Assembly (NCBI GenBank): GCA_024401645.1
Contig: JAKSKR010000001.1
Span: 1-64,000, forward strand
Direction: 5' to 3'
DNA length: 64,000 nucleotides
From: Paludibacteraceae bacterium
Lineage (GTDB): Bacteria; Bacteroidota; Bacteroidia; Bacteroidales; Paludibacteraceae
This document shows positions 41,538 through 61,213 of this stretch, one piece after another (position 1 is the first letter of the stretch; the number at the start of each line of letters is the position of its first letter). The notes under the pieces were generated by a model. It made no database searches. It had not been told where the DNA came from and saw only the letters and a list, made by a program, of their open reading frames with translations. A program made the position numbers and the translations under genes.

Positions 41538-42584
41538 ATGGCGAAAAAAGATTGGATGGTTATTGAGTCTGAATTGGATGAAGATCAGATTCGTGTCCTA
41601 ATGGCAACTAATGACAAATCGTTAATAGTATCCGGATGTGCAGGAAGTGGAAAGTCGGTTCTTGCCTTGATAAAAGCTCAAAGAATTCAAAAGGAAAAGG
41701 GCAATAATTATAAGGTTATTGTTTTTACGAAAGCGTTATGTCGATACATGAATTCAGGCAGAGAATCATTGGGATTACGAAATGATTTTTATTATCATTA
41801 TGAATGGAAAAAATGTAATAGACCTTCTGCTGATTATATTATTGTAGATGAAATTCAAGATTTTGATAGAAACGAAATACAAGAGTTTATCTCTGCAACG
41901 AATAGAAATTTTTTCTTTTTTGGAGATACGGCTCAATCAATTTACGAAGGTCTAAAAAGAACTCTACCTGTAGAAGAGATTAATTACATGTTGACTAATA
42001 GAGCTAAGGTCTTTAATTTATATCGGAATTATAGACTTCCAAGACCTGTTGCTAAGGTTGTGCAATATGTTGGCGTCGATTTAGAAGGTTTTGATATCGA
42101 CACGTATAAGTCAAGAGAAAATGCGATTCCTCGTTTCTTGAAGATACAAGGTCTTGAAAGCCAAATATCATCTATAGCTAGGATGATAAAGAATGGTTCT
42201 GTTTCTGACGTTGGTATCTTAGTACAAAGAAATGAAGACGTAAGAAAAGTTCATGAATTATTAAATAGTTTTGGTGTGAATCATGAATTGAAGTATGATG
42301 ATAAAACAAATTGGCATAATAATATAAATAACCTGGATTTTTCAACAGAAAATCCAAAGGTGATGACATATCATAGTGCAAAGGGGTTACAGTTTGGAAC
42401 TGTATTTTTACCCAATGTCGTTTCGCAACAAGATGATTCGGGAAGAAAGGCTTTGTATGTGGCAATGACGCGTACTTACCGAAATTTGATTATAATGTAT
42501 AGTGACGATTTGCCTTATCCATTGTCTAAAATACCGCAAGATTTGTACAAAAAAACAGAAAGAGATCAGGTGGAGGATATTTAA
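41538..42584 (+). CDS. Compact UvrD-like superfamily 1 helicase
   Basis: 348 residues with a full SF1 core: Walker A GCAGSGKS (33-40), Walker B/motif II IIVDEIQD (101-108), motif III FFGDTAQSIY (127-136), motif IV-like YRNYRLPRPV (162-171), motif V MTYHSAKGLQF (276-286) and motif VI LYVAMTRT (306-313). The 1B and 2B insertions of UvrD/Rep are missing, so this is a minimal form like those in GajB-type and other defence helicases. It lies between the methyltransferase and the 726-residue unknown. Probably ATP-driven nucleic-acid translocation; substrate unknown. Confidence 0.85.
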   Translation: MAKKDWMVIESELDEDQIRVLMATNDKSLIVSGCAGSGKSVLALIKAQRIQKEKGNNYKVIVFTKALCRYMNSGRESLGLRNDFYYHYEWKKCNRPSADYIIVDEIQDFDRNEIQEFISATNRNFFFFGDTAQSIYEGLKRTLPVEEINYMLTNRAKVFNLYRNYRLPRPVAKVVQYVGVDLEGFDIDTYKSRENAIPRFLKIQGLESQISSIARMIKNGSVSDVGILVQRNEDVRKVHELLNSFGVNHELKYDDKTNWHNNINNLDFSTENPKVMTYHSAKGLQFGTVFLPNVVSQQDDSGRKALYVAMTRTYRNLIIMYSDDLPYPLSKIPQDLYKKTERDQVEDI

Positions 42585-42585
42585 T

Positions 42586-44766
42586 ATGAAAAAATTATAT
42601 ATACCGACAACTACGTTGAATTTTAATAATGTGTTGTCAAGTGAAAGTATTTCACCAAAATCCTTTTATGAGAAACGTGGGTTTGGCTATTCTCGTTGGA
42701 TGACGATACCCGAAAATCCATTTGATAATTGTATAGTTCTATATGATTATATCGGAAATGTTGTAAGGCCCAAAAGTGAATTGGAAGATCATCCACTTCT
42801 GATAGAAGTAGAGTTGGATGAAAATATGGTAAAGTCAGTTGGTGACGGTATGTATATGTGTGATCACACTATTTATTTGACACCAACCAGTACTCGTTTC
42901 TTGTTCTTTTCTGATCTGAATCTGAAAATTACGTATTCAATGTCAGAAAGTAGTCTTGAAACAAAGTTGTGGGGAATTTATCATAAGAAAATTGAAATAC
43001 TCCAAAATGTCGGTGAACCTTATAAAATAATAAATGTTGATGATTTGTCTTTAAATACAGATGCAATAAAATCTGATATTAAGATAAATAAACTTAAAGG
43101 TTTGTTATATGGATATTTTATAGGTAAACTATTGTCGATGAGTATTGATGATGTTAAATGTCTCAATGCCTATAAGGAAATTCATAATATATTTGCTGCT
43201 ATTCTTTCAAGTTTTTCAAAACAGCCTACTGTTGCTCAAGATGAACGCTTAGAAGAATTGTTCTCTTATATCAATGGACAAACTCCTTTTTATCAAAAAT
43301 TATCTGTAATTGTTGATAATGAAAATGTCCGGAAACAAGTTTTGAACCTTATACGTGAAACGTATGGAGAAGTAAGGGATGAAGTTAATAAAACTCATTA
43401 TTTGTCTTATCTTCGCTCCAATAATGAGGAAAATGAAAATACCGCGATTAGTTGGATAAAATCTAAGATTCTAGATTCTGAAAAGGGAAAAGGAAAGTAT
43501 GGGTTGTCAACTATTGGATTGGATGACTTGATCGTTGTTGATGGATTATTGCACTCTGTAAAGGGTGATTTCTTATCAGCAGAGGTTGAAGATACTATAT
43601 TGAAAACATGGATTAATAGTACTTTGCTTAAGAACGAATATAATGGTAGAATCAGCACTTATCGGGAGGTTCTTGCTACTGATATTACGAAAGAAACAAA
43701 AAGCGTTTGTGGTGATGAGCTGTGGGGAAAAAGTACGTATAAGACAAGGTTGAACAATCTTCGCCATTTTATTGCCGGTGATAATGTTGAATTAGAATGG
43801 GGAAAAGATTTTATTTCGGCATTATCTGCAGTTGTGTTGTATGGCGAAAATTGGGAAAAATTGTTGTCGTTTATGCAGTCAAAGGAAATAACTGATTATG
43901 GGTTGGCCTTTGCTCTTTATGGTGAGTTGCATGGTTTCTCAAATTTAACGAGAGACTTTACGGATGTGTTATATTCACAGCCTGATAGAGGCTCTTTGTG
44001 GAATGTTTATAGGGAAATATATGGACAGTTGTTGGGTGAAAAATTACCTGATTTAATTAATATAGAAAAGGAAGGTGATACAGAATCCTTGCTACAAAAG
44101 GATTCTGAAACGGTAAAAATGGAAACCATTAAGGAAAAAGTTGACCCTATAATGAACGAATTTTTTGGAAGTGACGAATTCACGGGTTTGGGTGTTGCCG
44201 CAAACTGGTATAAGAAAGAACTGATGTCTCTATCTTATATTGATGCTGACGATTTCTTAAGCCAAATGAAAAAGTTAGGTAAAAAAAAAGATGCACCAAA
44301 GTCAACAAAAAGGAAATGGGATAAATGCGTAAAATTCTTTGGAAAAGCAATTTCTGAGAGCTCAAAAAATCAAGCAAAAGAAGAACCTTTGTTATTTGAT
44401 GTCTATAAAGAATTTCCTATAGGTGATTCTTTTTATTGTGATGTTAACATAATGATTCATATTGAAAAATTTTTGCCGGAAGATAGCTCCATAAGGAACC
44501 AATTTAAAGAAGATCTTGAATGGTTTCAAAATAATTATAAGGAATCTTATTATGATAAAAAAAAAGGTAAACAAGAGATAGGTCTCTATAAAAGTAGAAA
44601 TAAGGAGAATGCTGCGGTTATAGATAATTTTGGAAATTACTGTTCAAATAAGGTCAATTTAGATGTTGAAAACCCAAAAATGAAGTATTTGTCAGATCGT
44701 TATCGAAAGATTGATATTCAGAAAATTATTGATTTTTTAAAGAAGGAATATAAAGTAAATGTCTGA
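42586..44766 (+). CDS. Large protein of unknown function, operon core
   Basis: 726 residues from ATG 42586, one base after the helicase stop and preceded by GGAGG, which fixes the start. I recognise no domain. The first 200 residues are beta-rich (FYEKRGFGYSRWMTIPENPFDNCIVLYDYIG...DHTIYLTPTSTRFLF). The middle is helical with a Glu/Lys-rich stretch, and the end (FYCDVNIMIHIEKFLPEDSSI, KYLSDRYRKIDIQKIIDFLKKEY) is mixed. No signal peptide or membrane helix. Being the largest and unmatched member, it may carry the specific function of the system. It overlaps the DUF1848 gene by eight bases. Confidence 0.75.
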   Translation: MKKLYIPTTTLNFNNVLSSESISPKSFYEKRGFGYSRWMTIPENPFDNCIVLYDYIGNVVRPKSELEDHPLLIEVELDENMVKSVGDGMYMCDHTIYLTPTSTRFLFFSDLNLKITYSMSESSLETKLWGIYHKKIEILQNVGEPYKIINVDDLSLNTDAIKSDIKINKLKGLLYGYFIGKLLSMSIDDVKCLNAYKEIHNIFAAILSSFSKQPTVAQDERLEELFSYINGQTPFYQKLSVIVDNENVRKQVLNLIRETYGEVRDEVNKTHYLSYLRSNNEENENTAISWIKSKILDSEKGKGKYGLSTIGLDDLIVVDGLLHSVKGDFLSAEVEDTILKTWINSTLLKNEYNGRISTYREVLATDITKETKSVCGDELWGKSTYKTRLNNLRHFIAGDNVELEWGKDFISALSAVVLYGENWEKLLSFMQSKEITDYGLAFALYGELHGFSNLTRDFTDVLYSQPDRGSLWNVYREIYGQLLGEKLPDLINIEKEGDTESLLQKDSETVKMETIKEKVDPIMNEFFGSDEFTGLGVAANWYKKELMSLSYIDADDFLSQMKKLGKKKDAPKSTKRKWDKCVKFFGKAISESSKNQAKEEPLLFDVYKEFPIGDSFYCDVNIMIHIEKFLPEDSSIRNQFKEDLEWFQNNYKESYYDKKKGKQEIGLYKSRNKENAAVIDNFGNYCSNKVNLDVENPKMKYLSDRYRKIDIQKIIDFLKKEYKVNV

Positions 44767-45808
44767 AAAGAGCAAACTTAGGACTGAAAATGGATGTCTG
44801 GTCGATTCAATAGCTCCTGTTATAATATCTGCTAGCCGGTCGACTGATATACCTGCATTCTATGCCAAATGGTTTTTTAATCGTTTGGAGAAAGGGTATT
44901 GTACTTGGTACAATCCTTTCAATCAGCAGAAAATGTATATTTCTTTCAAGAATTGTAAAGTCATTGTGTTTTGGACAAAAAATCCGAAACCCATAATGCC
45001 TTATTTGCATATTTTGGATGAACTTGGAATTCATTACTATTTTCAAGTGACTCTAAATGATTATATGAGAGAGGGCTTTGAACCTAATGTACCCTCAGTT
45101 GAAGAACGAGTTGAAACATTTAAAGAATTATCTTCAAAAATCGGGAAGGATAGAATTATATGGCGTTTTGACCCTCTTATAGTCACAAAACAGATTTCAC
45201 CTCGAGAATTGTTAACAAGAATATGGCATGTTGGCAATAAATTAAAAGGTTATACTGACAAACTTGTTTTCAGTTTTGTTGATGTCAAGGCGTACCGAAA
45301 GGTTCAGAACAATTTGGTAAAGGAAACAGGTTACTTCGTTAAGGAAGATGTTGAGTCTGCAGAAATGACAGAGACGCAGCGACAGGAAGTTGTGGATGGG
45401 TTAGTGAAGATTCGCGAAGCATGGAAAAAAGAAGGGTGGAATGTGACCATGGCAACTTGTGCAGAGGATTTTGACTATGCCCAATATCAAATAGAGCATA
45501 ATCGTTGTATTGATGGAGAATTGATGAAACAAATATTTGCTGATGATGAAGAACTAGTTTATTATTTACATACTTTAAAATGGCCAGAACGAGATATATT
45601 TGGTGAACTTCCTCCATTGCCAACAAAACAGAAAAACGTAAAGGATTCAGGCCAACGAAAAGTGTGTGGTTGTATGGTTAGTAAAGACATTGGCATGTAT
45701 AACACATGTCGTCATTTTTGTGTTTATTGCTATGCAAACACAAGTAAGGAATGTGTTCAAAAGAATGCAGAAAAACATAACGATCAAAGTGAGAGTATAA
45801 TTGAATGA
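44759..45808 (+). CDS. DUF1848 family protein
   Basis: 349 residues. PVIISASRSTDIPAFYAKWFFNRL, VIVFWTKNPKPIMPYL, YYFQVTLNDY and DRIIWRFDPL match DUF1848. A C-terminal CRHFCVYCYAN (Cx3Cx2C, about 327-334) plus an upstream CGC suggests an iron-sulfur cluster, similar to the radical SAM motif but placed at the end of the protein. DUF1848 members are uncharacterised; a link to photolyase-like spore photoproduct chemistry has been suggested only by fold. The start overlaps the preceding gene by eight bases and the end overlaps the next by four. AT-rich like the rest of the operon. Confidence 0.82.
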   Translation: MSEKSKLRTENGCLVDSIAPVIISASRSTDIPAFYAKWFFNRLEKGYCTWYNPFNQQKMYISFKNCKVIVFWTKNPKPIMPYLHILDELGIHYYFQVTLNDYMREGFEPNVPSVEERVETFKELSSKIGKDRIIWRFDPLIVTKQISPRELLTRIWHVGNKLKGYTDKLVFSFVDVKAYRKVQNNLVKETGYFVKEDVESAEMTETQRQEVVDGLVKIREAWKKEGWNVTMATCAEDFDYAQYQIEHNRCIDGELMKQIFADDEELVYYLHTLKWPERDIFGELPPLPTKQKNVKDSGQRKVCGCMVSKDIGMYNTCRHFCVYCYANTSKECVQKNAEKHNDQSESIIE

Positions 45809-46311
45809 TAACTCCCTTTAGTGACAAATTATTAAACTTTGAGTATTTAAAATTTATGAGTACATATGGACTTTTAGACAGAATCCCTTTTGGAAAACAT
45901 TCTGGAGATACGGTGAAGTATATAATAGATAATGACAAAAACTATTATCGTTGGATGGTTGAAAATTGTTATGATGTAGATTTTACTGATGATGTCTATG
46001 ATTATGCCAATGGCGCTGATTATTCAAAAAAACGTGGAGATCCTAAAGAAGATGAGTATCAACGATTGTTAGATATTTGCAGAAATATGGATTTTGAAGC
46101 CCCATATGAATTGAGCGAATATATTACTGACAATAATATTGGTCGATATTTCCCCCATCTCGCAGGAGATGTGAAATTTGATGATGGCAGTACCCTTGAA
46201 AATGGTATAGCTCCAGAATCTTATGGAAGACTATGTAGAGATTTAGGTTTTGAAGGACCTAAATCATACAAATATGTAACTAATTTCACTCCTAATAAAG
46301 ATCTTTATTAA
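45805..46311 (+). CDS. Small protein with an IPFGKHSG motif
   Basis: 168 residues. DRIPFGKHSGDTVKYIIDNDKNYYRWMVENC (in parts: residues about 25-55) resembles the small C-terminal module of exonuclease X-like proteins and DUF3820, pattern 'PFGK..G......D..Y..W'. The rest (FEAPYELSEYI...RYFPHLAGDVKF...GRLCRDLGF) is unrecognised. The ATG overlaps the DUF1848 stop (ATGATAA), which supports this start; an inner ATG at 45856 is possible. Last gene of the operon, followed by a terminator. It may bind nucleic acid, but this is inference from the weak motif. Confidence 0.65.
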   Translation: MITPFSDKLLNFEYLKFMSTYGLLDRIPFGKHSGDTVKYIIDNDKNYYRWMVENCYDVDFTDDVYDYANGADYSKKRGDPKEDEYQRLLDICRNMDFEAPYELSEYITDNNIGRYFPHLAGDVKFDDGSTLENGIAPESYGRLCRDLGFEGPKSYKYVTNFTPNKDLY

Positions 46312-50355: not shown

Positions 50356-51939
50356 CTAATTCACCTTCTCAATCTTGCAAGTGTGTTCCTTGGTCTTCTC
50401 GTCGTAGTTGATGCCCACGAAAAGCACGTCGCCTTGGTATTGGGTTAGGGCCTGGCAGTAGTTCTTGTCCTTTATCTGTTGCAATGCGCTTTCAGCACTC
50501 TTGTTGTGCTTTAACTCAATTACTAATGCCGGAATGTTGGGTAGGTACGGAATCAGCACCAGGTCGGCATAGCCTTTGCCGGTTGGCAATTCCTTCACCA
50601 ACGTGTAGCGGGTGTTGGCATAGAAATAGGCAAGGCAGATGGCACTCTGAAAGCAGTGCTCGTCGTTATAGGTGAGCGGGCTGGTCACCTCGGTGTGTGC
50701 AGCGTCGAGTGCTTTTGCCACAGCATCCTCGTTGCCGTTAACGGTGGCGTCGAGCAACTTCTTCGAGGCGTTGACGATGGCCATAAGTTGCTTATAGTCG
50801 GGACTAATTTCAACAGACAATATCCATTGCTTGCGCACTTCCTCGTTCGGAATTTTACAAGTCATGCTCTCCCAATCGTAAGAAAGGTAACCCAAGTGAA
50901 TAAGGTAGGTGAACACATCGTCTTTTGTCCTGAAACTGTTCATGGTGTTTTGGTAGCCGCAAATTTCCACTTCTACCGATTCGCCTGCAATCATGTTCAC
51001 TACATCTTGACGGATACCCTCGAAGTCCATCAAGATGTACTCTTGAAGTGCCTCGAAGGAGCCAGTGGCCGACCAATAGCTGCTCATTCTTTTGCGGATG
51101 ATGGCTGTTGTTACCGATTTTGGGTTGAACAAACTGACCTGGTCGCTGAGCTTGTAACCATCGTACCAACGCTCAAACTCTGAGAAGTCGCATCCGTACT
51201 GTGCGCAGAGTTGCTTTGTCTCTTCTCTGGTAAAGCCGATGTGAGGCGCGAAGACGCCCGCATCGAGCATAGTGTATTCGTCGAACTCGTTCAGTTTTGA
51301 CTGAATCTTGTCCCTGACAATAGGAATGATGCCGGTTATGTAGGCAAGGGCGATGGCAGGGCGAAGGGTGGTGTCTTTGAACAAGCCATTCAAGAAACTC
51401 AAATAGCTTTGGAAAAGCGATTCGGACACTTGCTCACGCACCAACACGTCGTATTCGTCGATGATGATGACGAATTTTTCGCCGGTCTGTGCATAAACAT
51501 TGAGAATATTTTTAGCTATCGAGGAACCGTCTTCAAATTCAATTTCTGGAAATTCTCTTCTGAATTCCTTCAACAATATGTTGTTGATCTCTTTCATCAA
51601 AACATCCACTTTCTCCTCAATAATAGCATTCTGGTACAAGCCGTTCAAATCCAGCTTGATTACATTGAACTTGTTAAGGTTCTTGTCGTAGTCGGCTATC
51701 TGCCCAATTTTCATGTTGGCAAAAATCTCTCGGGTGTCGCAACCCTTTGAGTAGTAGGCAGAAATCATGTTGCCGGCCATACTCTTACCGAAGCGGCGCG
51801 GACGTGACATGCAGACGAAGTTAGATCTAGAACTGACCAATTTGTTCAGCTCTTCTATAACCAACGATTTGTCTACATAAATCTCGGTGTTTTTATCCAT
51901 GAGAAACGCATCAGCGTTCGGATTCAAATATATGCCCAT
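50356..51939 (-). CDS. AAA-ATPase/PD-(D/E)XK protein, copy 1 (A1-B1)
   Basis: 527 residues. The N-terminal AAA-ATPase-like domain (PF09820 type) has Walker A SRPRRFGKSM (45-54), Walker B FVIIIDEYDVL (156-166) and the family motif RWYDGYKL. The C-terminal DUF1703 nuclease-like domain has GYADLVLIP (Asp near 459) and ALVIELK (Glu475, Lys477) with QQIKDKNY after it. Variable cassette A (51487-51669, residues 91-151) is type 1 (LYQNAIIEEK); cassette B (50773-51325, residues 205-389) is type 1 (DEYTMLDAGV). Everything else is nearly identical to copies 2-4. It is the 3'-most copy and alone ends in KVN. Function is unproven; such ATPases are much expanded in Bacteroidota. Confidence 0.9.
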   Translation of the reverse strand: MGIYLNPNADAFLMDKNTEIYVDKSLVIEELNKLVSSRSNFVCMSRPRRFGKSMAGNMISAYYSKGCDTREIFANMKIGQIADYDKNLNKFNVIKLDLNGLYQNAIIEEKVDVLMKEINNILLKEFRREFPEIEFEDGSSIAKNILNVYAQTGEKFVIIIDEYDVLVREQVSESLFQSYLSFLNGLFKDTTLRPAIALAYITGIIPIVRDKIQSKLNEFDEYTMLDAGVFAPHIGFTREETKQLCAQYGCDFSEFERWYDGYKLSDQVSLFNPKSVTTAIIRKRMSSYWSATGSFEALQEYILMDFEGIRQDVVNMIAGESVEVEICGYQNTMNSFRTKDDVFTYLIHLGYLSYDWESMTCKIPNEEVRKQWILSVEISPDYKQLMAIVNASKKLLDATVNGNEDAVAKALDAAHTEVTSPLTYNDEHCFQSAICLAYFYANTRYTLVKELPTGKGYADLVLIPYLPNIPALVIELKHNKSAESALQQIKDKNYCQALTQYQGDVLFVGINYDEKTKEHTCKIEKVN

Positions 51940-51963
51940 ACTCTAGCCGATTTTATTGATATA

Positions 51964-51971
51964 CAAAGATA
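51964..51971 (-). promoter_or_regulatory. -7 box before copy 1
   Basis: TATCTTTG in the 43-base spacer, 24 bases from the ATG. A TTG inside the end of copy 2 (51996-51994) is 22 bases away, looser than normal. Confidence 0.45.
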
Positions 51972-51982
51972 AACAGAATATC

Positions 51983-53563
51983 TCACACCTTCTCAATCTT
52001 GCAAGTGTGTTCCTTGGTCTTCTCGTCGTAGTTGATGCCCACGAAAAGCACGTCGCCTTGGTATTGGGTTAGGGCCTGGCAGTAGTTCTTGTCCTTTATC
52101 TGTTGCAATGCGCTTTCAGCACTCTTGTTGTGCTTTAACTCAATTACTAATGCCGGAATGTTGGGTAGGTACGGAATCAGCACCAGGTCGGCATAGCCTT
52201 TGCCGGTTGGCAATTCCTTCACCAACGTGTAGCGGGTGTTGGCATAGAAATAGGCAAGGCAGATGGCACTCTGAAAGCAGTGCTCGTCGTTATAGGTGAG
52301 CGGGCTGGTCACCTCGGTGTGTGCAGCGTCGAGTGCTTTTGCCACAGCATCCTCGTTGCCGTTAACGGTGGCGTCGAGCAACTTCTTCGAGGCGTTTATA
52401 AGCGACATGATGGAGCTGTAGTTCTCTTCGTCATCTATTGAGTTGACCCATTCCCTACGCACTTCCTCGTTAGGGATGTGGCAGGTTTGGTCTTTGGCAT
52501 TGTAGCACAAGTAGCCCAAATGAATCAGATAGGTGAATGCGTTGTCTTTATTGGTGATGGACTGTAACGTATTCTGAAACTTGGTCACATTTACAGGTAC
52601 ACTCTCACCAGCTATCATGCTGATAACATCTTGCTTTATGCCCGCAAAATCCATCATAATGTAGTCTTTGAGCGCTTCAAATGAGCCTGTGGCAGACCAG
52701 TGACTGTCGAACTCGTTATACATAACCGCCTGAACAATAGACAGCGGGTTGCAGATGCTGACGGTGTCGTTCATCTTATAACCGTCGTACCAACGTAGGC
52801 ACTCGTCATAGTCTACATTATGCTTGTCGCAAAGCTCCTTGACCTCCTCTTCTGTAAAACCGATGTGGCCCGCGAACTGACGGGGGGTGAGCATGGTGTA
52901 TTCCCAAAACTCGTTCAGTTTTGACTGAATCTTGTCCCTGACAATAGGTATGATGCCGGTTATGTAGGCAAGGGCGATGGCAGGGCGAAGGGTGGTGTCT
53001 TTGAACAAGCCATTCAAGAAACTCAAATAGCTTTGGAAAAGCGATTCGGACACTTGCTCACGCACCAACACGTCGTATTCGTCGATGATGATGACGAATT
53101 TTTCGCCGGTCTGTGCATAAACATTGAGAATATTTTTAGCTATCGAGGAACCGTCTTCAAATTCAATTTCTGGAAATTCTCTTCTGAATTCCTTCAACAA
53201 TATGTTGTTGATCTCTTTCATCAAAACATCCACTTTCTCCTCAATAATAGCATTCTGGTACAAGCCGTTCAAATCCAGCTTGATTACATTGAACTTGTTA
53301 AGGTTCTTGTCGTAGTCGGCTATCTGCCCAATTTTCATGTTGGCAAAAATCTCTCGGGTGTCGCAACCCTTTGAGTAGTAGGCAGAAATCATGTTGCCGG
53401 CCATACTCTTACCGAAGCGGCGCGGACGTGACATGCAGACGAAGTTAGATCTAGAACTGACCAATTTGTTCAGCTCTTCTATAACCAACGATTTGTCTAC
53501 ATAAATCTCGGTGTTTTTATCCATGAGAAACGCATCAGCGTTCGGATTCAAATATATGCCCAT
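51983..53563 (-). CDS. AAA-ATPase/PD-(D/E)XK protein, copy 2 (A1-B2)
   Basis: 526 residues, same domains and catalytic residues as copy 1. Cassette A (53111-53293) is type 1, identical to copy 1. Cassette B (52397-52949) is type 2 (WEYTMLTPRQFAGHIGFTEE, RWYDGYKMNDTVSICNP). The join points fall inside coding sequence without changing the frame, so this reads as an intact gene and not a scar. The stop overlaps nothing; a 43-base spacer links it to copy 1. It has its own -7 box at 53588-53595. Confidence 0.9.
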   Translation of the reverse strand: MGIYLNPNADAFLMDKNTEIYVDKSLVIEELNKLVSSRSNFVCMSRPRRFGKSMAGNMISAYYSKGCDTREIFANMKIGQIADYDKNLNKFNVIKLDLNGLYQNAIIEEKVDVLMKEINNILLKEFRREFPEIEFEDGSSIAKNILNVYAQTGEKFVIIIDEYDVLVREQVSESLFQSYLSFLNGLFKDTTLRPAIALAYITGIIPIVRDKIQSKLNEFWEYTMLTPRQFAGHIGFTEEEVKELCDKHNVDYDECLRWYDGYKMNDTVSICNPLSIVQAVMYNEFDSHWSATGSFEALKDYIMMDFAGIKQDVISMIAGESVPVNVTKFQNTLQSITNKDNAFTYLIHLGYLCYNAKDQTCHIPNEEVRREWVNSIDDEENYSSIMSLINASKKLLDATVNGNEDAVAKALDAAHTEVTSPLTYNDEHCFQSAICLAYFYANTRYTLVKELPTGKGYADLVLIPYLPNIPALVIELKHNKSAESALQQIKDKNYCQALTQYQGDVLFVGINYDEKTKEHTCKIEKV

Positions 53564-53587
53564 ACTCTAGCCGATTTTATTGATATA

Positions 53588-53595
53588 CAAAGATA
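53588..53595 (-). promoter_or_regulatory. -7 box before copy 2
   Basis: TATCTTTG in the spacer between copies 2 and 3, in the same position relative to the ATG as in the other copies. Confidence 0.45.
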
Positions 53596-53606
53596 AACAG
53601 AATATC

Positions 53607-55190
53607 TCACACCTTCTCAATCTTGCAAGTGTGTTCCTTGGTCTTCTCGTCGTAGTTGATGCCCACGAAAAGCACGTCGCCTTGGTATTGGGTTAGGGCC
53701 TGGCAGTAGTTCTTGTCCTTTATCTGTTGCAATGCGCTTTCAGCACTCTTGTTGTGCTTTAACTCAATTACTAATGCCGGAATGTTGGGTAGGTACGGAA
53801 TCAGCACCAGGTCGGCATAGCCTTTGCCGGTTGGCAATTCCTTCACCAACGTGTAGCGGGTGTTGGCATAGAAATAGGCAAGGCAGATGGCACTCTGAAA
53901 GCAGTGCTCGTCGTTATAGGTGAGCGGGCTGGTCACCTCGGTGTGTGCAGCGTCGAGTGCTTTTGCCACAGCATCCTCGTTGCCGTTAACGGTGGCGTCG
54001 AGCAACTTCTTCGAGGCGTTGACGATGGCCATAAGTTGCTTATAGTCGGGACTAATTTCAACAGACAATATCCATTGCTTGCGCACTTCCTCGTTCGGAA
54101 TTTTACAAGTCATGCTCTCCCAATCGTAAGAAAGGTAACCCAAGTGAATAAGGTAGGTGAACACATCGTCTTTTGTCCTGAAACTGTTCATGGTGTTTTG
54201 GTAGCCGCAAATTTCCACTTCTACCGATTCGCCTGCAATCATGTTCACTACATCTTGACGGATACCCTCGAAGTCCATCAAGATGTACTCTTGAAGTGCC
54301 TCGAAGGAGCCAGTGGCCGACCAATAGCTGCTCATTCTTTTGCGGATGATGGCTGTTGTTACCGATTTTGGGTTGAACAAACTGACCTGGTCGCTGAGCT
54401 TGTAACCATCGTACCAACGCTCAAACTCTGAGAAGTCGCATCCGTACTGTGCGCAGAGTTGCTTTGTCTCTTCTCTGGTAAAGCCGATGTGAGGCGCGAA
54501 GACGCCCGCATCGAGCATAGTGTATTCGTCGAACTCGTTCAGTTTTGACTGAATCTTGTCCCTGACAATAGGAATGATGCCGGTTATGTAGGCAAGGGCG
54601 ATGGCAGGGCGAAGGGTGGTGTCTTTGAACAAGCCATTCAAGAAACTCAAATAGCTTTGGAAAAGCGATTCGGACACTTGCTCACGCACCAACACGTCGT
54701 ATTCGTCGATGATGATGACGAATTTTTCGCCGGTTTTACCATATACCTTGAGTATGCATTGGTCTATCGTATTATCGTTTTCCGTCAATCCAACGGAAGG
54801 AAATTGTTCCTTTATTTCTTCTGCAACGGCAGTGTCGATAGCAGAAATCAAATTGACTTCTTTGTTTCTTTTTTTTGCATTCTGGTACCAACCGTTTAAG
54901 TCCAACTTGATGACGTTGAGCTTGTTAAGGCTCTTATCGTAGTCGGCTATCTGCCCAATTTTCATGTTGGCAAAAATCTCTCGGGTGTCGCAACCCTTTG
55001 AGTAGTAGGCAGAAATCATGTTGCCGGCCATACTCTTACCGAAGCGGCGCGGACGTGACATGCAGACGAAGTTAGATCTAGAACTGACCAATTTGTTCAG
55101 CTCTTCTATAACCAACGATTTGTCTACATAAATCTCGGTGTTTTTATCCATGAGAAACGCATCAGCGTTCGGATTCAAATATATGCCCAT
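53607..55190 (-). CDS. AAA-ATPase/PD-(D/E)XK protein, copy 3 (A2-B1)
   Basis: 527 residues. Cassette A (54735-54920, 186 bases, one codon longer than type 1) is type 2 (GWYQNAKKRNKEV...SVGLTENDN). Cassette B (54021-54573) is type 1, matching copy 1. The invariant block between the cassettes holds Walker B. A private change DKSLNK is seen just before cassette A, where the others have DKNLNK. All motifs for ATP binding and the nuclease core remain. Confidence 0.9.
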   Translation of the reverse strand: MGIYLNPNADAFLMDKNTEIYVDKSLVIEELNKLVSSRSNFVCMSRPRRFGKSMAGNMISAYYSKGCDTREIFANMKIGQIADYDKSLNKLNVIKLDLNGWYQNAKKRNKEVNLISAIDTAVAEEIKEQFPSVGLTENDNTIDQCILKVYGKTGEKFVIIIDEYDVLVREQVSESLFQSYLSFLNGLFKDTTLRPAIALAYITGIIPIVRDKIQSKLNEFDEYTMLDAGVFAPHIGFTREETKQLCAQYGCDFSEFERWYDGYKLSDQVSLFNPKSVTTAIIRKRMSSYWSATGSFEALQEYILMDFEGIRQDVVNMIAGESVEVEICGYQNTMNSFRTKDDVFTYLIHLGYLSYDWESMTCKIPNEEVRKQWILSVEISPDYKQLMAIVNASKKLLDATVNGNEDAVAKALDAAHTEVTSPLTYNDEHCFQSAICLAYFYANTRYTLVKELPTGKGYADLVLIPYLPNIPALVIELKHNKSAESALQQIKDKNYCQALTQYQGDVLFVGINYDEKTKEHTCKIEKV

Positions 55191-55214
55191 ACTCTAGCCG
55201 ATTTTATTGATATA

Positions 55215-55222
55215 CAAAGATA
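55215..55222 (-). promoter_or_regulatory. -7 box before copy 3
   Basis: TATCTTTG in the spacer between copies 3 and 4, with the same spacing as in the other copies. Confidence 0.45.
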
Positions 55223-55233
55223 AACAGAATATC

Positions 55234-56817
55234 TCACACCTTCTCAATCTTGCAAGTGTGTTCCTTGGTCTTCTCGTCGTAGTTGATGCCCACGAAAAGC
55301 ACGTCGCCTTGGTATTGGGTTAGGGCCTGGCAGTAGTTCTTGTCCTTTATCTGTTGCAATGCGCTTTCAGCACTCTTGTTGTGCTTTAACTCAATTACTA
55401 ATGCCGGAATGTTGGGTAGGTACGGAATCAGCACCAGGTCGGCATAGCCTTTGCCGGTTGGCAATTCCTTCACCAACGTGTAGCGGGTGTTGGCATAGAA
55501 ATAGGCAAGGCAGATGGCACTCTGAAAGCAGTGCTCGTCGTTATAGGTGAGCGGGCTGGTCACCTCGGTGTGTGCAGCGTCGAGTGCTTTTGCCACAGCA
55601 TCCTCGTTGCCGTTAACGGTGGCGTCGAGCAACTTCTTCGAGGCGTTTATAAGCGACATGATGGAGCTGTAGTTCTCTTCGTCATCTATTGAGTTGACCC
55701 ATTCCCTACGCACTTCCTCGTTAGGGATGTGGCAGGTTTGGTCTTTGGCATTGTAGCACAAGTAGCCCAAATGAATCAGATAGGTGAATGCGTTGTCTTT
55801 ATTGGTGATGGACTGTAACGTATTCTGAAACTTGGTCACATTTACAGGTACACTCTCACCAGCTATCATGCTGATAACATCTTGCTTTATGCCCGCAAAA
55901 TCCATCATAATGTAGTCTTTGAGCGCTTCAAATGAGCCTGTGGCAGACCAGTGACTGTCGAACTCGTTATACATAACCGCCTGAACAATAGACAGCGGGT
56001 TGCAGATGCTGACGGTGTCGTTCATCTTATAACCGTCGTACCAACGTAGGCACTCGTCATAGTCTACATTATGCTTGTCGCAAAGCTCCTTGACCTCCTC
56101 TTCTGTAAAACCGATGTGGCCCGCGAACTGACGGGGGGTGAGCATGGTGTATTCCCAAAACTCGTTCAGTTTTGACTGAATCTTGTCCCTGACAATAGGT
56201 ATGATGCCGGTTATGTAGGCAAGGGCGATGGCAGGGCGAAGGGTGGTGTCTTTGAACAAGCCATTCAAGAAACTCAAATAGCTTTGGAAAAGCGATTCGG
56301 ACACTTGCTCACGCACCAACACGTCGTATTCGTCGATGATGATGACGAATTTTTCGCCGGTTTTACCATATACCTTGAGTATGCATTGGTCTATCGTATT
56401 ATCGTTTTCCGTCAATCCAACGGAAGGAAATTGTTCCTTTATTTCTTCTGCAACGGCAGTGTCGATAGCAGAAATCAAATTGACTTCTTTGTTTCTTTTT
56501 TTTGCATTCTGGTACCAGCCGTTTAAGTCCAACTTGATGACGTTGAGCTTGTTAAGGTTCTTGTCGTAGTCGGCTATCTGCCCGATTTTCATGTTGGCAA
56601 AAATCTCTCGGGTGTCGCACCCCTTTGAGTAGAAGGCAGAAATCATGTTACCGGCCATGCTCTTGCCGAAGCGGCGTGGGCGTGACATGCAGACGAAGTT
56701 AGATCTAGAACTGACCAATTTGTTCAGCTCTTCTATAACCAACGATTTGTCTACATAAATCTCGGTGTTTTTATCCATGAGAAACGCATCAGCGTTCGGA
56801 TTCAAATATATGCCCAT
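55234..56817 (-). CDS. AAA-ATPase/PD-(D/E)XK protein, copy 4 (A2-B2)
   Basis: 527 residues, the promoter-proximal (5'-most) copy. Cassette A (56362-56547) is type 2 and cassette B (55648-56200) is type 2. Its N-terminal region carries several silent changes and one replacement (AFYSKGC for AYYSKGC) not found in the other three, so it may be the older template or have been touched by conversion from elsewhere. It has the best promoter of the four. Motifs as in copy 1. Confidence 0.9.
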   Translation of the reverse strand: MGIYLNPNADAFLMDKNTEIYVDKSLVIEELNKLVSSRSNFVCMSRPRRFGKSMAGNMISAFYSKGCDTREIFANMKIGQIADYDKNLNKLNVIKLDLNGWYQNAKKRNKEVNLISAIDTAVAEEIKEQFPSVGLTENDNTIDQCILKVYGKTGEKFVIIIDEYDVLVREQVSESLFQSYLSFLNGLFKDTTLRPAIALAYITGIIPIVRDKIQSKLNEFWEYTMLTPRQFAGHIGFTEEEVKELCDKHNVDYDECLRWYDGYKMNDTVSICNPLSIVQAVMYNEFDSHWSATGSFEALKDYIMMDFAGIKQDVISMIAGESVPVNVTKFQNTLQSITNKDNAFTYLIHLGYLCYNAKDQTCHIPNEEVRREWVNSIDDEENYSSIMSLINASKKLLDATVNGNEDAVAKALDAAHTEVTSPLTYNDEHCFQSAICLAYFYANTRYTLVKELPTGKGYADLVLIPYLPNIPALVIELKHNKSAESALQQIKDKNYCQALTQYQGDVLFVGINYDEKTKEHTCKIEKV

Positions 56818-56841
56818 ACTCTAGCCGATTTTATTGATATA

Positions 56842-56870
56842 CAAAGATAAACAGAATAAACTATACCCAA
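56842..56870 (-). promoter_or_regulatory. Main promoter of the ATPase-nuclease array
   Basis: TTG (56870-56868), 18-base spacer, TATCTTTG (56849-56842) on the minus strand. Only copy 4 has this good spacing, since its upstream sequence is unique. Confidence 0.6.
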
Positions 56871-58604: not shown

Positions 58605-59705
58605 CTACACAATCAGAGCCCTGTCGTAGGTCTTAATGTCATTGAAAAGCTGTTGGAAGTCGCGTAGGCGATCCATCTCGTCGCAGTGTGTCAGTTCAAT
58701 GCGGTAGTTGTGTGCTGTGGCAATGTTTGCCTCCTCCCCTTGAATGCGTTTTGCCAAATCGCTAACGTCTAGCAATCCGAAACGGAAGTTGTCTTGGAAG
58801 ATGTTATAGGTGTTCGTGCGGTCTTCCATGACACCGTTGGCAATGTAGGCGCGGTTTGTCTCGTCGGTAAGGAAACCCTTGCCGTGGCGGGTTAGGTAGG
58901 GGCGGGTAACGTAGTGCAGGGTAATGTCGTCGCAACCCAGTTCCCTGGCAATCTGCAATGCATATTCGGCAGTTGTTTTAGAAGGGGTGGTGCCAGCCAC
59001 GTCTTTGCCTGTGTCGTTCAGCAGTAGTCCCTGTCCATTCTCGAAGATGACTTCGTCGTAGACCGTTGGGTTCAGCACCGTGCTCACCTTTTGGCAAAGG
59101 AAAGCGCAGTCGGCAATAAAGTGGTCGACCATGTTTGCGTTGTACCACATATCCCTGAAGTTGGCAGGAATCTCACCCAAGCGTTTCTCGAAGTAGTTTC
59201 TTACCATGGTCAGGTATTTCTTCTGTTCTGCCGTTTCAAGCGCGCAGAAGGCGTCTAAACCCATGGTAATGGTGTTCTCGTAGCGAAGCACGGTTTCCCA
59301 AATGCCCATGCCGCAGCTGCCATGCTTGTCTTTCTGGCGTAGTTGCTCAACAATCTGGTTTGCCAGCATGTCGTAAGGGGTGCTCCAGCGGCAGTTCCGG
59401 TCGCGGAACAGCTTTACCCTCGTTGCCACGTTGCGGTTGGTAAGCTCGCCATATTCGTACGCAAACTGCATGGGGTTGAGAATGAAGAAAGCGCAATAGT
59501 AATTATCGGCACCATGGTAGGTGCCGGCACCGAAGTGCTGGAACGTGAAGCTGCCATCTTCGGTTAAGATTGAGTGCCCACGTTGTGCACCACCGTTGGT
59601 GAGTACGTTAAGCACCTTGCCTGTGGCATGCTTGGTGTAGGTGGCAACCACCGTACCCTTGCCCTCGTCGCCATAGTTTGCACCAATAATTACCCTTGCT
59701 TTCAT
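58605..59705 (-). CDS. Divergent adenylosuccinate synthetase-like protein
   Basis: 366 residues, about 60 shorter than housekeeping PurA. The GTPase P-loop-like GANYGDEGKGTVV keeps the catalytic Asp (Asp13), and NGGAQRGHS keeps the His (His44). SCGMGIWETVLRYENT, IFENGQGLLLNDTGKD and FRFGLLDVSDL correspond to other PurA blocks. The usual QWGDEGKGK and TTTGRxRRCGW signatures are altered. PurZ, the phage enzyme for 2-aminoadenine, normally loses the catalytic Asp, so this is not PurZ by that test. Third and last gene of an operon behind a vWA protein and an acidic-tailed protein. A condensation on a purine-like nucleotide is plausible; the product is unknown. Confidence 0.75.
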   Translation of the reverse strand: MKARVIIGANYGDEGKGTVVATYTKHATGKVLNVLTNGGAQRGHSILTEDGSFTFQHFGAGTYHGADNYYCAFFILNPMQFAYEYGELTNRNVATRVKLFRDRNCRWSTPYDMLANQIVEQLRQKDKHGSCGMGIWETVLRYENTITMGLDAFCALETAEQKKYLTMVRNYFEKRLGEIPANFRDMWYNANMVDHFIADCAFLCQKVSTVLNPTVYDEVIFENGQGLLLNDTGKDVAGTTPSKTTAEYALQIARELGCDDITLHYVTRPYLTRHGKGFLTDETNRAYIANGVMEDRTNTYNIFQDNFRFGLLDVSDLAKRIQGEEANIATAHNYRIELTHCDEMDRLRDFQQLFNDIKTYDRALIV

Positions 59706-59723: not shown

Positions 59724-60581
59724 TTACCAGCTAATGCCGAAGTTGTTGTCATTTTTCGGTTCTTGCGGATTCTTTTCAATGCTGTCGGCAATGCATTCGC
59801 AAATGGTTGCGCTCAAGCCATTGATGGTAGCCTCCTTGTAGTTGTTGCCAAGAAGTTTGCCAAAGGTTGCTTCAATTCTATCCTTGTAGTCGTCGAAACA
59901 GTCTTTCCTGTCGTTGACTGCAATGTGGTAGATGTCGAACTTCTCGCAAGCCTTCTTGTAAAGAGCGTTGGTTTCGATATCGGCCTGATTGGTGTCGCCA
60001 GTAACAGCGTTCAGCTCACGCACAGGCAAGTACGGATTCAACGGCTCGTCGCCCATGGTGATGATGATGCCCTTGCGGCCTTGGTCGTTAAAGGCGTCGA
60101 GCTTGGTGTGGTGCAAACCGAAGTACCAGGCTGCAGTGTAGCTCTCGTAGCCGTTGCCACCGCCACCGTGCTCCATGTAAATCTTGTCTAGCGCCTCGGC
60201 AATGCGAATGTCGCTTTCGAATTGGCTAGCCTGAATTGGAGCGTTGTCGTAGGCAAGGTCGCCAATGCCCATCACCATAAACTCAATGTCGGTATATTTG
60301 TTGTAAAGGTTGGTCATAATGGTGCCAAGCGCCTCTGCGGTTTCGCGGCACGCCTCACCCATACTTCCGGTAACGTCTAGTGCCAGAATCACCGGTATGG
60401 TGTTGGGGTGCTCGGTGTTGTTGGCACATTCGCGAATTACGCCTTTAGGGTCTAAACTTGGATCCAAGTGCCTAGCGCGGTAGGTTTGGCCCGTTACTCT
60501 GTTTGTGTCTCTGTCGTAGGTTTTGCCAGCGTTAGTGCTGTAACGTGCAAATTCCTCCATGTCCCATCTTCCGTATCCCAT
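59724..60581 (-). CDS. von Willebrand factor A domain protein
   Basis: 285 residues, cytosolic. The MIDAS metal site is intact: DVTGSMGE (Asp69-Ser73), a Thr-containing middle loop and IIITMGDEP with the later Asp. The N-terminal 60 residues (MGYGRWDMEEFARYSTNAGKT with TYRARHLDP) form a conserved lead-in. HGGGGNGYESYTAAWYFGLHHT is a striking glycine-rich loop. vWA domains mediate metal-dependent protein assembly and are often paired with TerB, TerD or chaperone genes in stress systems. Its start is two bases after the upstream stop and the PurA-like gene follows in 18 bases. Confidence 0.85.
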   Translation of the reverse strand: MGYGRWDMEEFARYSTNAGKTYDRDTNRVTGQTYRARHLDPSLDPKGVIRECANNTEHPNTIPVILALDVTGSMGEACRETAEALGTIMTNLYNKYTDIEFMVMGIGDLAYDNAPIQASQFESDIRIAEALDKIYMEHGGGGNGYESYTAAWYFGLHHTKLDAFNDQGRKGIIITMGDEPLNPYLPVRELNAVTGDTNQADIETNALYKKACEKFDIYHIAVNDRKDCFDDYKDRIEATFGKLLGNNYKEATINGLSATICECIADSIEKNPQEPKNDNNFGISW

Positions 60582-60583
60582 AA

Positions 60584-61213
60584 TTAGTCCTCCTCATTTA
60601 AAGTTTCATCATTATCATCATTATCGTTGTCGTCAATGTCGAAGTTTTCGAACATTTCGTCAAACATGCCATCTTTTCCGTTGTTCATCAACATGCTCAT
60701 AGCCATCATTTGGCCAAGGTTGCCGTTCATGAATCCGTTGTTGCCGTTGGCGGCTGCGTTGTTGTTACCGCCCATCATTTGGTTAATGACCATCATTTTC
60801 ATGATCTTGCCGAAGCCCTTTGCACCCTTGAAGTTGTTGCCAAGCATGCTTACAATCTTGCCGTAGAAGAAGACGTTGCCCATTAGCACTTGTCGTTCAG
60901 GAACAATCTGCTTAACTTCAGCCGTTTCGTAGTCAATGGCGGTTATCATCTTCTTGGTGGCGTCAATCACGCATTTTGGCTTGCCGTCTACCAGAATGAT
61001 GTCGCCAGCCTTTACCTTCATGGTTGGCATTACGAAGAAGAAGTCGCAACCAAGGTCGAAACAGAAGTTGTTCACGTTGGTTAGTGTGCCGTTCTTCACG
61101 TCGTAGGTCTTGTAACCGTTAGTGGTCTTAATAGCAATGTTGCCATTAATTGTAATTCGGCACATGCCATTGGCAATCTTGCCGAACATTCCGTTAAATG
61201 TGTTCATATCCAT
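60584..61213 (-). CDS. Unknown protein with Met/Asn-rich region and acidic tail
   Basis: 209 residues. The first 120 residues are a beta-rich domain (ITINGNIAIKTTNGYKTYDV, VKAGDIILVDGKPKCVID) like a small barrel. Then comes a stretch rich in Met, Asn and Gly (MMVINQMMGGNNNAAANGNNG...QMMAMSMLMNN), and the last 25 residues are almost all Asp/Asn/Glu. No enzyme motif. First gene of the operon, with the best promoter in the region. The low-complexity part suggests self-association or a flexible tether. Confidence 0.7.
   Translation of the reverse strand: MDMNTFNGMFGKIANGMCRITINGNIAIKTTNGYKTYDVKNGTLTNVNNFCFDLGCDFFFVMPTMKVKAGDIILVDGKPKCVIDATKKMITAIDYETAEVKQIVPERQVLMGNVFFYGKIVSMLGNNFKGAKGFGKIMKMMVINQMMGGNNNAAANGNNGFMNGNLGQMMAMSMLMNNGKDGMFDEMFENFDIDDNDNDDNDETLNEED

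What the first reader, a model, noticed from the sequence alone, without database searches (positions are those of the whole stretch)
50356..56850. Four tandem ATPase-nuclease genes carry all four combinations of two cassettes
Sequence shows: four 1.63-kb units, constant blocks and spacers almost identical in DNA, and variation confined to cassette A (about 185 bp, residues 91-151, between Walker A and Walker B) and cassette B (553 bp, residues 205-389). Each cassette has exactly two strongly different versions, and the four genes are A1B1, A1B2, A2B1 and A2B2, a full 2x2 set. Random duplication would not be expected to give this; it suggests shuffling by recombination or conversion and selection to keep every pairing. 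Cassettes like these could be specificity surfaces, as in HsdS or other diversified defence or surface systems. The function is inference.
Basis: partly seen in the sequence, partly recalled or inferred. Interest (0 to 1): 0.88.

Follow-up and report, generated by a model that had tools for sequence, protein, structure and literature searches.

The report
Cassette-swapping ATPase-nuclease gene array
Four neighbouring bacterial genes for predicted ATPase-nuclease proteins carry every pairing of two interchangeable segments, and related genes in other genomes swap the same segments, which likely lets the cells re-pair ready-made recognition surfaces much as restriction enzymes swap their target-reading parts.

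Summary
Four tandem DUF1703-family genes (PF09820 ATPase plus PF08011 nuclease) are identical in DNA except for cassette A (78 sites), cassette B (219 sites), 11 other substitutions and the 3' end; the pairings are A2B2, A2B1, A1B2, A1B1. Synonymous divergence is high in A (1.9) and beyond estimate in B but 0 behind B, so recombination made the mosaic. The pattern is wider: 7 of 7 other close pairs in the set show it; dispersed paralogs share one cassette only; one locus in two species is 98.9% identical over 3.4 kb except 175 bp of cassette A at 52%; a distant subfamily does the same. A and B pair almost independently, same-version cassettes are under purifying selection, and each array gene has its own promoter-like box. 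The full 2x2 set alone is weak evidence for selection: given two copies of each version, 4 of 6 pairings give it. Best reading: a repertoire of STAND-like sensor nucleases with exchangeable recognition modules. The shuffling is shown; the function is inferred.

The parts
55234..56817 (-). g4, first gene of the array, A2B2; AAA-ATPase_like plus PDDEXK_9
53607..55190 (-). g3, A2B1
51983..53563 (-). g2, A1B2
50356..51939 (-). g1, A1B1
56362..56547 (-). cassette A version 2 in g4
   Evidence: CDS 271-456; inner edge agrees with the exact repeats
54735..54920 (-). cassette A version 2 in g3
53111..53293 (-). cassette A version 1 in g2 (one codon shorter)
51487..51669 (-). cassette A version 1 in g1
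55648..56200 (-). cassette B version 2 in g4
   Evidence: CDS 618-1170
54021..54573 (-). cassette B version 1 in g3
52397..52949 (-). cassette B version 2 in g2
50773..51325 (-). cassette B version 1 in g1
55191..55233 (-). spacer g4>g3 with TATCTTTG, a TAnnTTTG promoter-like box (that this is the Bacteroidota -7 type is recalled)
53564..53606 (-). spacer g3>g2, identical, same box
51940..51982 (-). spacer g2>g1, identical, same box
56818..56861 (-). leader of g4 with the same TATCTTTG box

Best explanation
This is a tandem set of four DUF1703-family ATPase-nuclease genes in which two long-diverged versions of each of two cassettes have been re-paired by recombination, and the cassettes are likely the parts that recognise a trigger. 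Shown by sequence: constant blocks are identical or nearly so while A and B (and often B's two halves) move as separate units between tandem, dispersed and orthologous copies; each array gene keeps its own promoter-like box; the residues named for both active sites are conserved in the aligned relatives. Inferred: the exchange is ordinary homologous recombination or gene conversion between conserved blocks (codons 40-100, 153-218 and the nuclease end). Inferred: the proteins are STAND-like switches in which A and B contact a ligand, most likely a protein of a phage or other invader; ATP then drives a change of state, and the PD-(D/E)XK domain cuts nucleic acid. A genome with many such genes would hold a repertoire whose specificities are renewed by re-pairing cassettes rather than by new mutation.
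For: Cassettes and the 2x2 set. dS 1.9 in A and beyond estimate in B with dS 0 in the nuclease block. Same block structure in 7 of 7 pairs outside the window whose starts lie within 6.5 kb in the 72-gene set (best segment at least 96% DNA identity, worst at most 58%). Dispersed sharing of one cassette: C13/C34 with B 100% and A 50%; C13/C45 with A 96% and B 68%; G003 C24/C26 with A 99% and B 65%. Orthologous swap: L042 versus L068 98.9% over 3,376 aligned columns and 52% over the 175 of cassette A (profile). A second subfamily (22-25% identity) shuffles A, B-left and B-right among contigs C3, C5 and C45; a tandem triple in another genus does too. A-B pairing near-independent. Same-version dN/dS 0.083 (A, 34 pairs), 0.050 (B-left, 52) and 0.053 (B-right, 52), against 0.073-0.082 in constant blocks. 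Active-site residues invariant in 78 of 78 aligned rows. TAnnTTTG box in 64 of 79 upstream regions (64 of the 67 not from Lachnospiraceae-type loci, 0 of 12 from those), against 3.6% of shuffled upstreams. ATPase part resembles archaeal STAND-like ATPases, NLRs, CED-4, Avs5 and Avs3. A1B1 and A2B2 share nearly the same predicted layout.
Against: No PADLOC model hits the four genes. Of 124 neighbouring ORFs from 39 loci, no PADLOC family hit more than 2 members and the commonest Pfam families are transporters, LRR_5 and GidA; only the top 25 of 256 and 122 families were shown, and no background was run, so a defence-island signal is neither shown nor excluded. No separate sensor or repeat domain. 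NLR and Avs matches are by fold only and lie close in Z to ORC and other AAA+ ATPases. No coordinates were available, so a joint A-B surface was not tested. The A-B coupling is small (r 0.06) but above permutation (p 0.002). Purifying selection within versions does not look like a fast arms race. Family-wide the versions form a continuum rather than sharp classes.
Confidence: 0.5

Rival explanations
1. The cassettes read DNA: A sits in the helices between Walker A and Walker B and B covers the lid and winged-helix-like region, the two places where Orc1/Cdc6 ATPases are recalled to touch DNA, so each pairing would read a two-part DNA site, like HsdS, before cutting.
Against: Whole A and both B halves are acidic on average (-2.0, -6.5, -5.1), but the nuclease block is -2.1 too, so this is weak. 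No methyltransferase among the 10 window neighbours scanned. The Orc contact sites are recalled, not checked.
Confidence: 0.15
2. Neutral mosaic: paralogs recombine freely and the variable blocks are tolerant stretches without recognition function, so the 2x2 set is a by-product of tandem conversion.
For: Given two copies of each version the full 2x2 set appears in 4 of 6 pairings. Intragenic recombination among DUF1703 paralogs is already described in Cardinium (PMC6387759, section 14). Identities between A versions form a continuum.
Against: Same-version cassettes are under purifying selection as strong as the constant blocks. A1-like and B2-like cassettes are kept in a congener (88% and 96%) and A2-like and B1-like in another genus (80% and 81%). 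In helix 111-129 of A the variable positions tend to one side (p 0.03, uncorrected; 3 of 15 helices tested were below 0.05).
Confidence: 0.2
3. Partner specificity: the cassettes are subunit interfaces, so each version assembles only with matching protomers and the array makes several non-mixing or mixed oligomers.
For: STAND and AAA+ relatives oligomerise (NLR and CED-4 assemblies).
Against: An A-to-B interface in a homo-oligomer would make A and B co-vary; they are nearly independent (partial r 0.06). An A-to-A or B-to-B interface is not excluded.
Confidence: 0.1
4. Assembly artefact: the 2x2 set was made by an assembler walking through collapsed repeats or strain variants.
For: The array holds exact repeats of 1,425, 1,125 and 1,071 bp in a draft genome of 58 contigs, 71% complete, with no 16S found. 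Reads and assembly method are unknown.
Against: Three other loci of this genome keep exact repeats of 951-991 bp inside one contig. A1B2-like and A2B1-like genes exist in two other species. Cassette swaps occur at loci with a single copy and in MAGs from several projects.
Confidence: 0.1

Closest known systems
DUF1703 paralogs of Cardinium cCpun (PMC6387759; section 14 read, other passages seen)
   Same: Same two-domain architecture, a large paralog family (25 there), intragenic recombination reported, function unknown
   Different: In what I read no cassette boundaries, tandem factorial array or orthologous cassette swap is described; the paralogs average 39% identity and 'no apparent homogenization' was seen
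Type I restriction specificity subunits (HsdS) with exchangeable target recognition domains (search listing; details recalled)
   Same: Two variable modules between conserved blocks, re-paired by recombination
   Different: No HsdS domain in the genes; the variable modules sit inside an ATPase that carries its own nuclease; the array copies are direct repeats, each with its own promoter-like box, with no inverted repeats of 40 bp or more
Archaeal STAND-like ATPases (PDB 2qen, 2fna) and PF01637 ATPase_2
   Different: Only 13-15% identity; cassette exchange was not examined in them
Avs anti-phage STAND proteins (Avs5 9jap, Avs3 8dgc) and plant NLRs
   Same: Similar ATPase-module layout by fold
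   Different: Here no large C-terminal sensor domain was found; the nuclease is C-terminal; diversity lies inside the ATPase module

Membership tests
DUF1703 (PF09820 + PF08011) | N-terminal AAA-ATPase_like and C-terminal PDDEXK_9 domains | tested here: met
   4 of 4 proteins above both gathering scores
DUF1703 (PF09820 + PF08011) | Walker A RPRRFGKS, Walker B DEYD, PD-(D/E)XK residues and motif IV glutamine (Knizewski 2007, passages seen) | tested here: met
   R46, R48, R49, G51, K52, D162, E163, D165, E451, D460, E476, K478 and Q489 invariant in 78 of 78 rows; P47 and S53 at 90% or more
STAND NTPases | Nucleotide-binding, helical and winged-helix domains in STAND order | tested here: inconclusive
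   Fold match over residues 1-390 to 2qen, 2fna, NLRs and CED-4, but also to ORC and other AAA+
STAND NTPases | Separate C-terminal repeat or sensor domain (recalled) | tested here: not met
   Pfam shows only the ATPase and nuclease domains
Type I R-M specificity subunit (HsdS) | HsdS target-recognition domain family | tested here: not met
   No such Pfam hit in 4 of 4 proteins
Type I R-M specificity subunit (HsdS) | HsdM and HsdR partners nearby | tested here: not met
   10 neighbouring window ORFs scanned by Pfam and PADLOC; none is HsdM or HsdR; the rest of the window was not scanned
Inverting shufflon or phase-variable locus | Inverted copies that can flip | tested here: not met
   0 inverted-repeat pairs of 40 bp or more in 48-60 kb
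Inverting shufflon or phase-variable locus | Adjacent site-specific recombinase | tested here: not met
   None among the 10 neighbouring ORFs scanned; the rest of the window was not scanned
Known anti-phage defence systems (PADLOC-DB 2023) | Match to a system component model | tested here: not met
   0 hits for 4 of 4 genes

The most novel reading that the evidence does not exclude
A bacterial, NLR-like combinatorial immune repertoire: stand-alone ATPase-nuclease receptors, up to 27 per genome, each with its own promoter, whose specificity is built from a species-crossing library of A, B-left and B-right cassettes (plus an N-terminal segment) that recombination re-pairs in tandem arrays, dispersed paralogs and orthologous loci.
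Probability: 0.3. Interest if true: 0.9.

Novelty: new variant of a known kind. Interest (0 to 1): 0.68.

Why it matters
DUF1703 proteins are widespread, sometimes strongly expanded, and have no known function (PMC6387759). The pattern here says where to look: within a gene that is otherwise constant, evolution keeps long-diverged, constrained versions of two or three modules and keeps changing their combination. That is how systems that recognise many different partners behave. The 2x2 array gives four natural proteins differing almost only by cassette, a ready-made factorial experiment to learn what A and B each do. If they are immune sensors, this would be a combinatorial receptor repertoire in bacteria.

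Tried and rejected
Selection for all four pairings: rejected as an argument. Two copies of each version give the full set in 4 of 6 pairings; with versions drawn freely it is 24 of 256. Fast evolution without recombination: rejected, because synonymous divergence is 1.9 in A and beyond estimate in B but 0 in the nuclease block. Positive selection: the first dN/dS run gave a median of 0.53 for A with 12 of 104 pairs above 1, but that mixed different A versions; restricted to pairs at least 75% identical in protein it is 0.083. Mobile element: plasmid matches were 51 records, all under 60% identity; the 30 phage-collection records are all named 'Bacteriophage', and the 20 listed are unannotated faecal contigs; transposon-like ends were not sought. 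Defence-island test: inconclusive, no background run. PDB sequence search: nothing up to E 1. Charge as a test of DNA against protein ligand: weak, since the nuclease block is as acidic as A and the variable sites alone are near neutral. Helix-face test: 3 of 15 helices had p below 0.05, uncorrected. Empty site: in the fetched stretches of congeners G002 and G003 the right flank (about 57.1-64.0 kb) aligns, but nothing of window 40-57 kb aligns in the 9.4-9.7 kb held to the left, so the insertion point could not be read. One search gave '100%' flanks for some pairs because the look-up could take one locus for both genes; searches are used instead. The Lachnospiraceae mosaic is weaker and counted only as a hint. 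Rows dropped: one search left out rows with over 60 gaps and merged identical rows (262 to 185, which include truncated copies of the window genes); one search thinned these to 131; searches took 124 of 148 neighbour ORFs (4 family members and 20 others left out; ORFs over 900 aa were not taken).
Full report
What is there. Four minus-strand genes, g4 to g1 in transcription order, lie at 55234-56817, 53607-55190, 51983-53563 and 50356-51939, with a period of 1624-1627 bp. Each encodes an AAA-ATPase_like domain (PF09820) and a PD-(D/E)XK nuclease domain (PF08011), the DUF1703 architecture described by Knizewski et al. 2007 (PMC1913061, passages seen). In the coding alignment, 78 sites separate g4,g3 from g2,g1 (cassette A, CDS 271-456) and 219 separate g4,g2 from g3,g1 (cassette B, CDS 618-1170); the only other substitutions are 8 unique to g4 and 3 unique to g3, plus the last codons of g1. 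The three spacers are identical. So the set is A2B2, A2B1, A1B2, A1B1.

It is recombination. Between g4 and g1, dS is 0 in the nuclease block and 0.02 in the middle block, but 1.9 in A and beyond estimate in both halves of B. Two histories therefore lie side by side in one gene, and the sharing of the same A and B sequences in crossed pairs needs exchange. Which genes are parental cannot be proven, but the two middle genes have look-alikes elsewhere: congener G004 (L028, a horse-faeces MAG) carries an A1-like (88%) B2-like (96%) gene, and L042 (another horse-faeces MAG, other genus) an A2-like (80%) B1-like (81%) gene.

It is general. Over 185 unique aligned rows, diversity per 10-residue block is highest at residues 101-140 (0.52-0.68) and raised over much of 221-390, and low around the Walker motifs and in the nuclease; residues 11-40 and 171-180 are raised as well. 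Median pairwise identity is 0.41 for A and 0.65 for B, against 0.76, 0.86 and 0.87 for the N, middle and C blocks; A forms 46 clusters and B 11 at 70% identity, but the identities form a continuum. In 72 genes there are 171 within-genome pairs; in 7 of 7 pairs outside the window with starts within 6.5 kb the best segment is at least 96% and the worst at most 58% identical in DNA. Dispersed genes share single cassettes: C13 and C34 share B at 100% with A at 50%; C13 and C45 share A at 96% with B at 68%. In the 14 pairs profiled, breakpoints recur near codons 100, 150-200, 221, 300 and 390, and residues 11-40 are one more switching segment.

Orthologous swaps. L042 and L068 are one locus in MAGs of two species (Horse_feces87 and 86). 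A tract of about 3.5 kb, gene included, is 98.9% identical except for 175 columns at cassette A, which are 52% identical; beyond the tract the aligned pieces are 73-87% identical. L031 and L032 (Horse_feces88 and rumen MAG RUI231) show the same A-only difference in a gene otherwise mostly 92-100% identical, with no alignable immediate flank. For g3 against its L042 relative (G082 C48), dS in A is 0.36 while N, M and C are 3.1, 1.4 and 2.5, as if the cassette alone had moved between species more recently.

Parallel in other branches. A second subfamily of this genome (22-25% identity to g4 for these genes; 28-30% locally) has A, B-left and B-right as separate units: C3 and C45 share A, M and B-left at 100% but differ in B-right (0.59); C3 and C5 share B-right at 100% and differ in A and B-left. 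A tandem triple in another genus (G018) and a tandem set in G003 also differ at A while sharing other blocks (4 of 78 and 2 of 15 pairs met the mosaic threshold). In Lachnospiraceae the pattern is visible but weaker.

Pairing and selection. After thinning to 131 proteins, A and B distances correlate with partial r 0.06 (permutation p 0.002: small but not zero); of 246 pairs with B at least 90% identical, 161 have A under 50% identical, and of 172 pairs with A at least 80% identical, 72 have B under 70%. Same-version pairs between species (at least 75% protein identity) have median dN/dS 0.083 in A (34 pairs), 0.050 in B-left (52) and 0.053 in B-right (52), like the constant blocks (0.073-0.082). 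The versions are thus constrained and nearly freely paired. The full 2x2 set alone is not evidence for selection (4 of 6 pairings given two copies of each version).

Expression. 64 of 79 upstream regions have TAnnTTTG within 60 bp of the start, 0 of the 12 from Lachnospiraceae-type loci among them, against 3.6% of shuffled upstreams and 2.8% of random 60-bp stretches; that this is the Bacteroidota -7 box is recalled. All three array spacers and the leader of g4 carry it, so all four genes are likely expressed at once.

Context. The genome is a 58-contig draft with 27 PF08011 matches, the most of 31 genomes searched; 20 of the 31 have none and 0 of 14 control genomes has one. For 124 neighbouring ORFs of 39 loci the commonest Pfam families are transporters, LRR_5 and GidA, and no PADLOC family hit more than 2 (top 25 families seen).

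Mechanism. I commit to homologous exchange in the constant blocks feeding a repertoire of sensor nucleases. The exchange is shown by sequence; that A and B recognise a ligand, that the ligand is a protein of an invader, and that the nuclease cuts nucleic acid are inferred. The DNA-reading version and the neutral version remain open.

Novelty. Recombination among DUF1703 paralogs is in print (PMC6387759, section 14). In my searches (for HsdS-like shuffling) I saw no listing that reports cassette boundaries, independent A/B pairing, orthologous cassette swaps or a factorial array in this family; I opened only three papers (PMC6387759, PMC1913061, PMC10952713), and the library lacks most subscription papers. 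PF09820 is also named for RADAR, PARIS1 and Old-tin ATPases in a defence review (PMC10952713, one passage).

Changes on checking.

Noticed in passing
58605-59705 (-), with 59724-60581 and 60584-61213: A short adenylosuccinate-synthetase-like protein (366 aa, PF00709) beside a conserved 285-aa ORF without a Pfam hit; both are kept in congeners G002 and G003. Role unclear.
   Followed up: partly
42502-46311 (+): A run of a 754-aa protein without Pfam hits, a DUF1848 protein (PADLOC RTasDUF1848, E 1.4e-41) and a small ExoX-C-like protein, overlapping by a few bases: a possible operon of its own.
   Followed up: no
L179 1-9001 (G018:C16): A tandem triple of more distant DUF1703 genes in another genus, with three different A cassettes.
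   Followed up: partly
   Followed up: partly
L031 and L032, about 3-17 kb (e.g. L031 6224-6823, 8212-8767, 14713-15297): A stretch of roughly 300-600 bp recurs several times within and between these two loci around the ATPase-nuclease gene; nature unknown.
   Followed up: no
window left of 57130: Alignment with congeners G002 and G003 stops just right of the array: the MFS gene side aligns, nothing of 40-57 kb does in the 9.4-9.7 kb held.
   Followed up: partly
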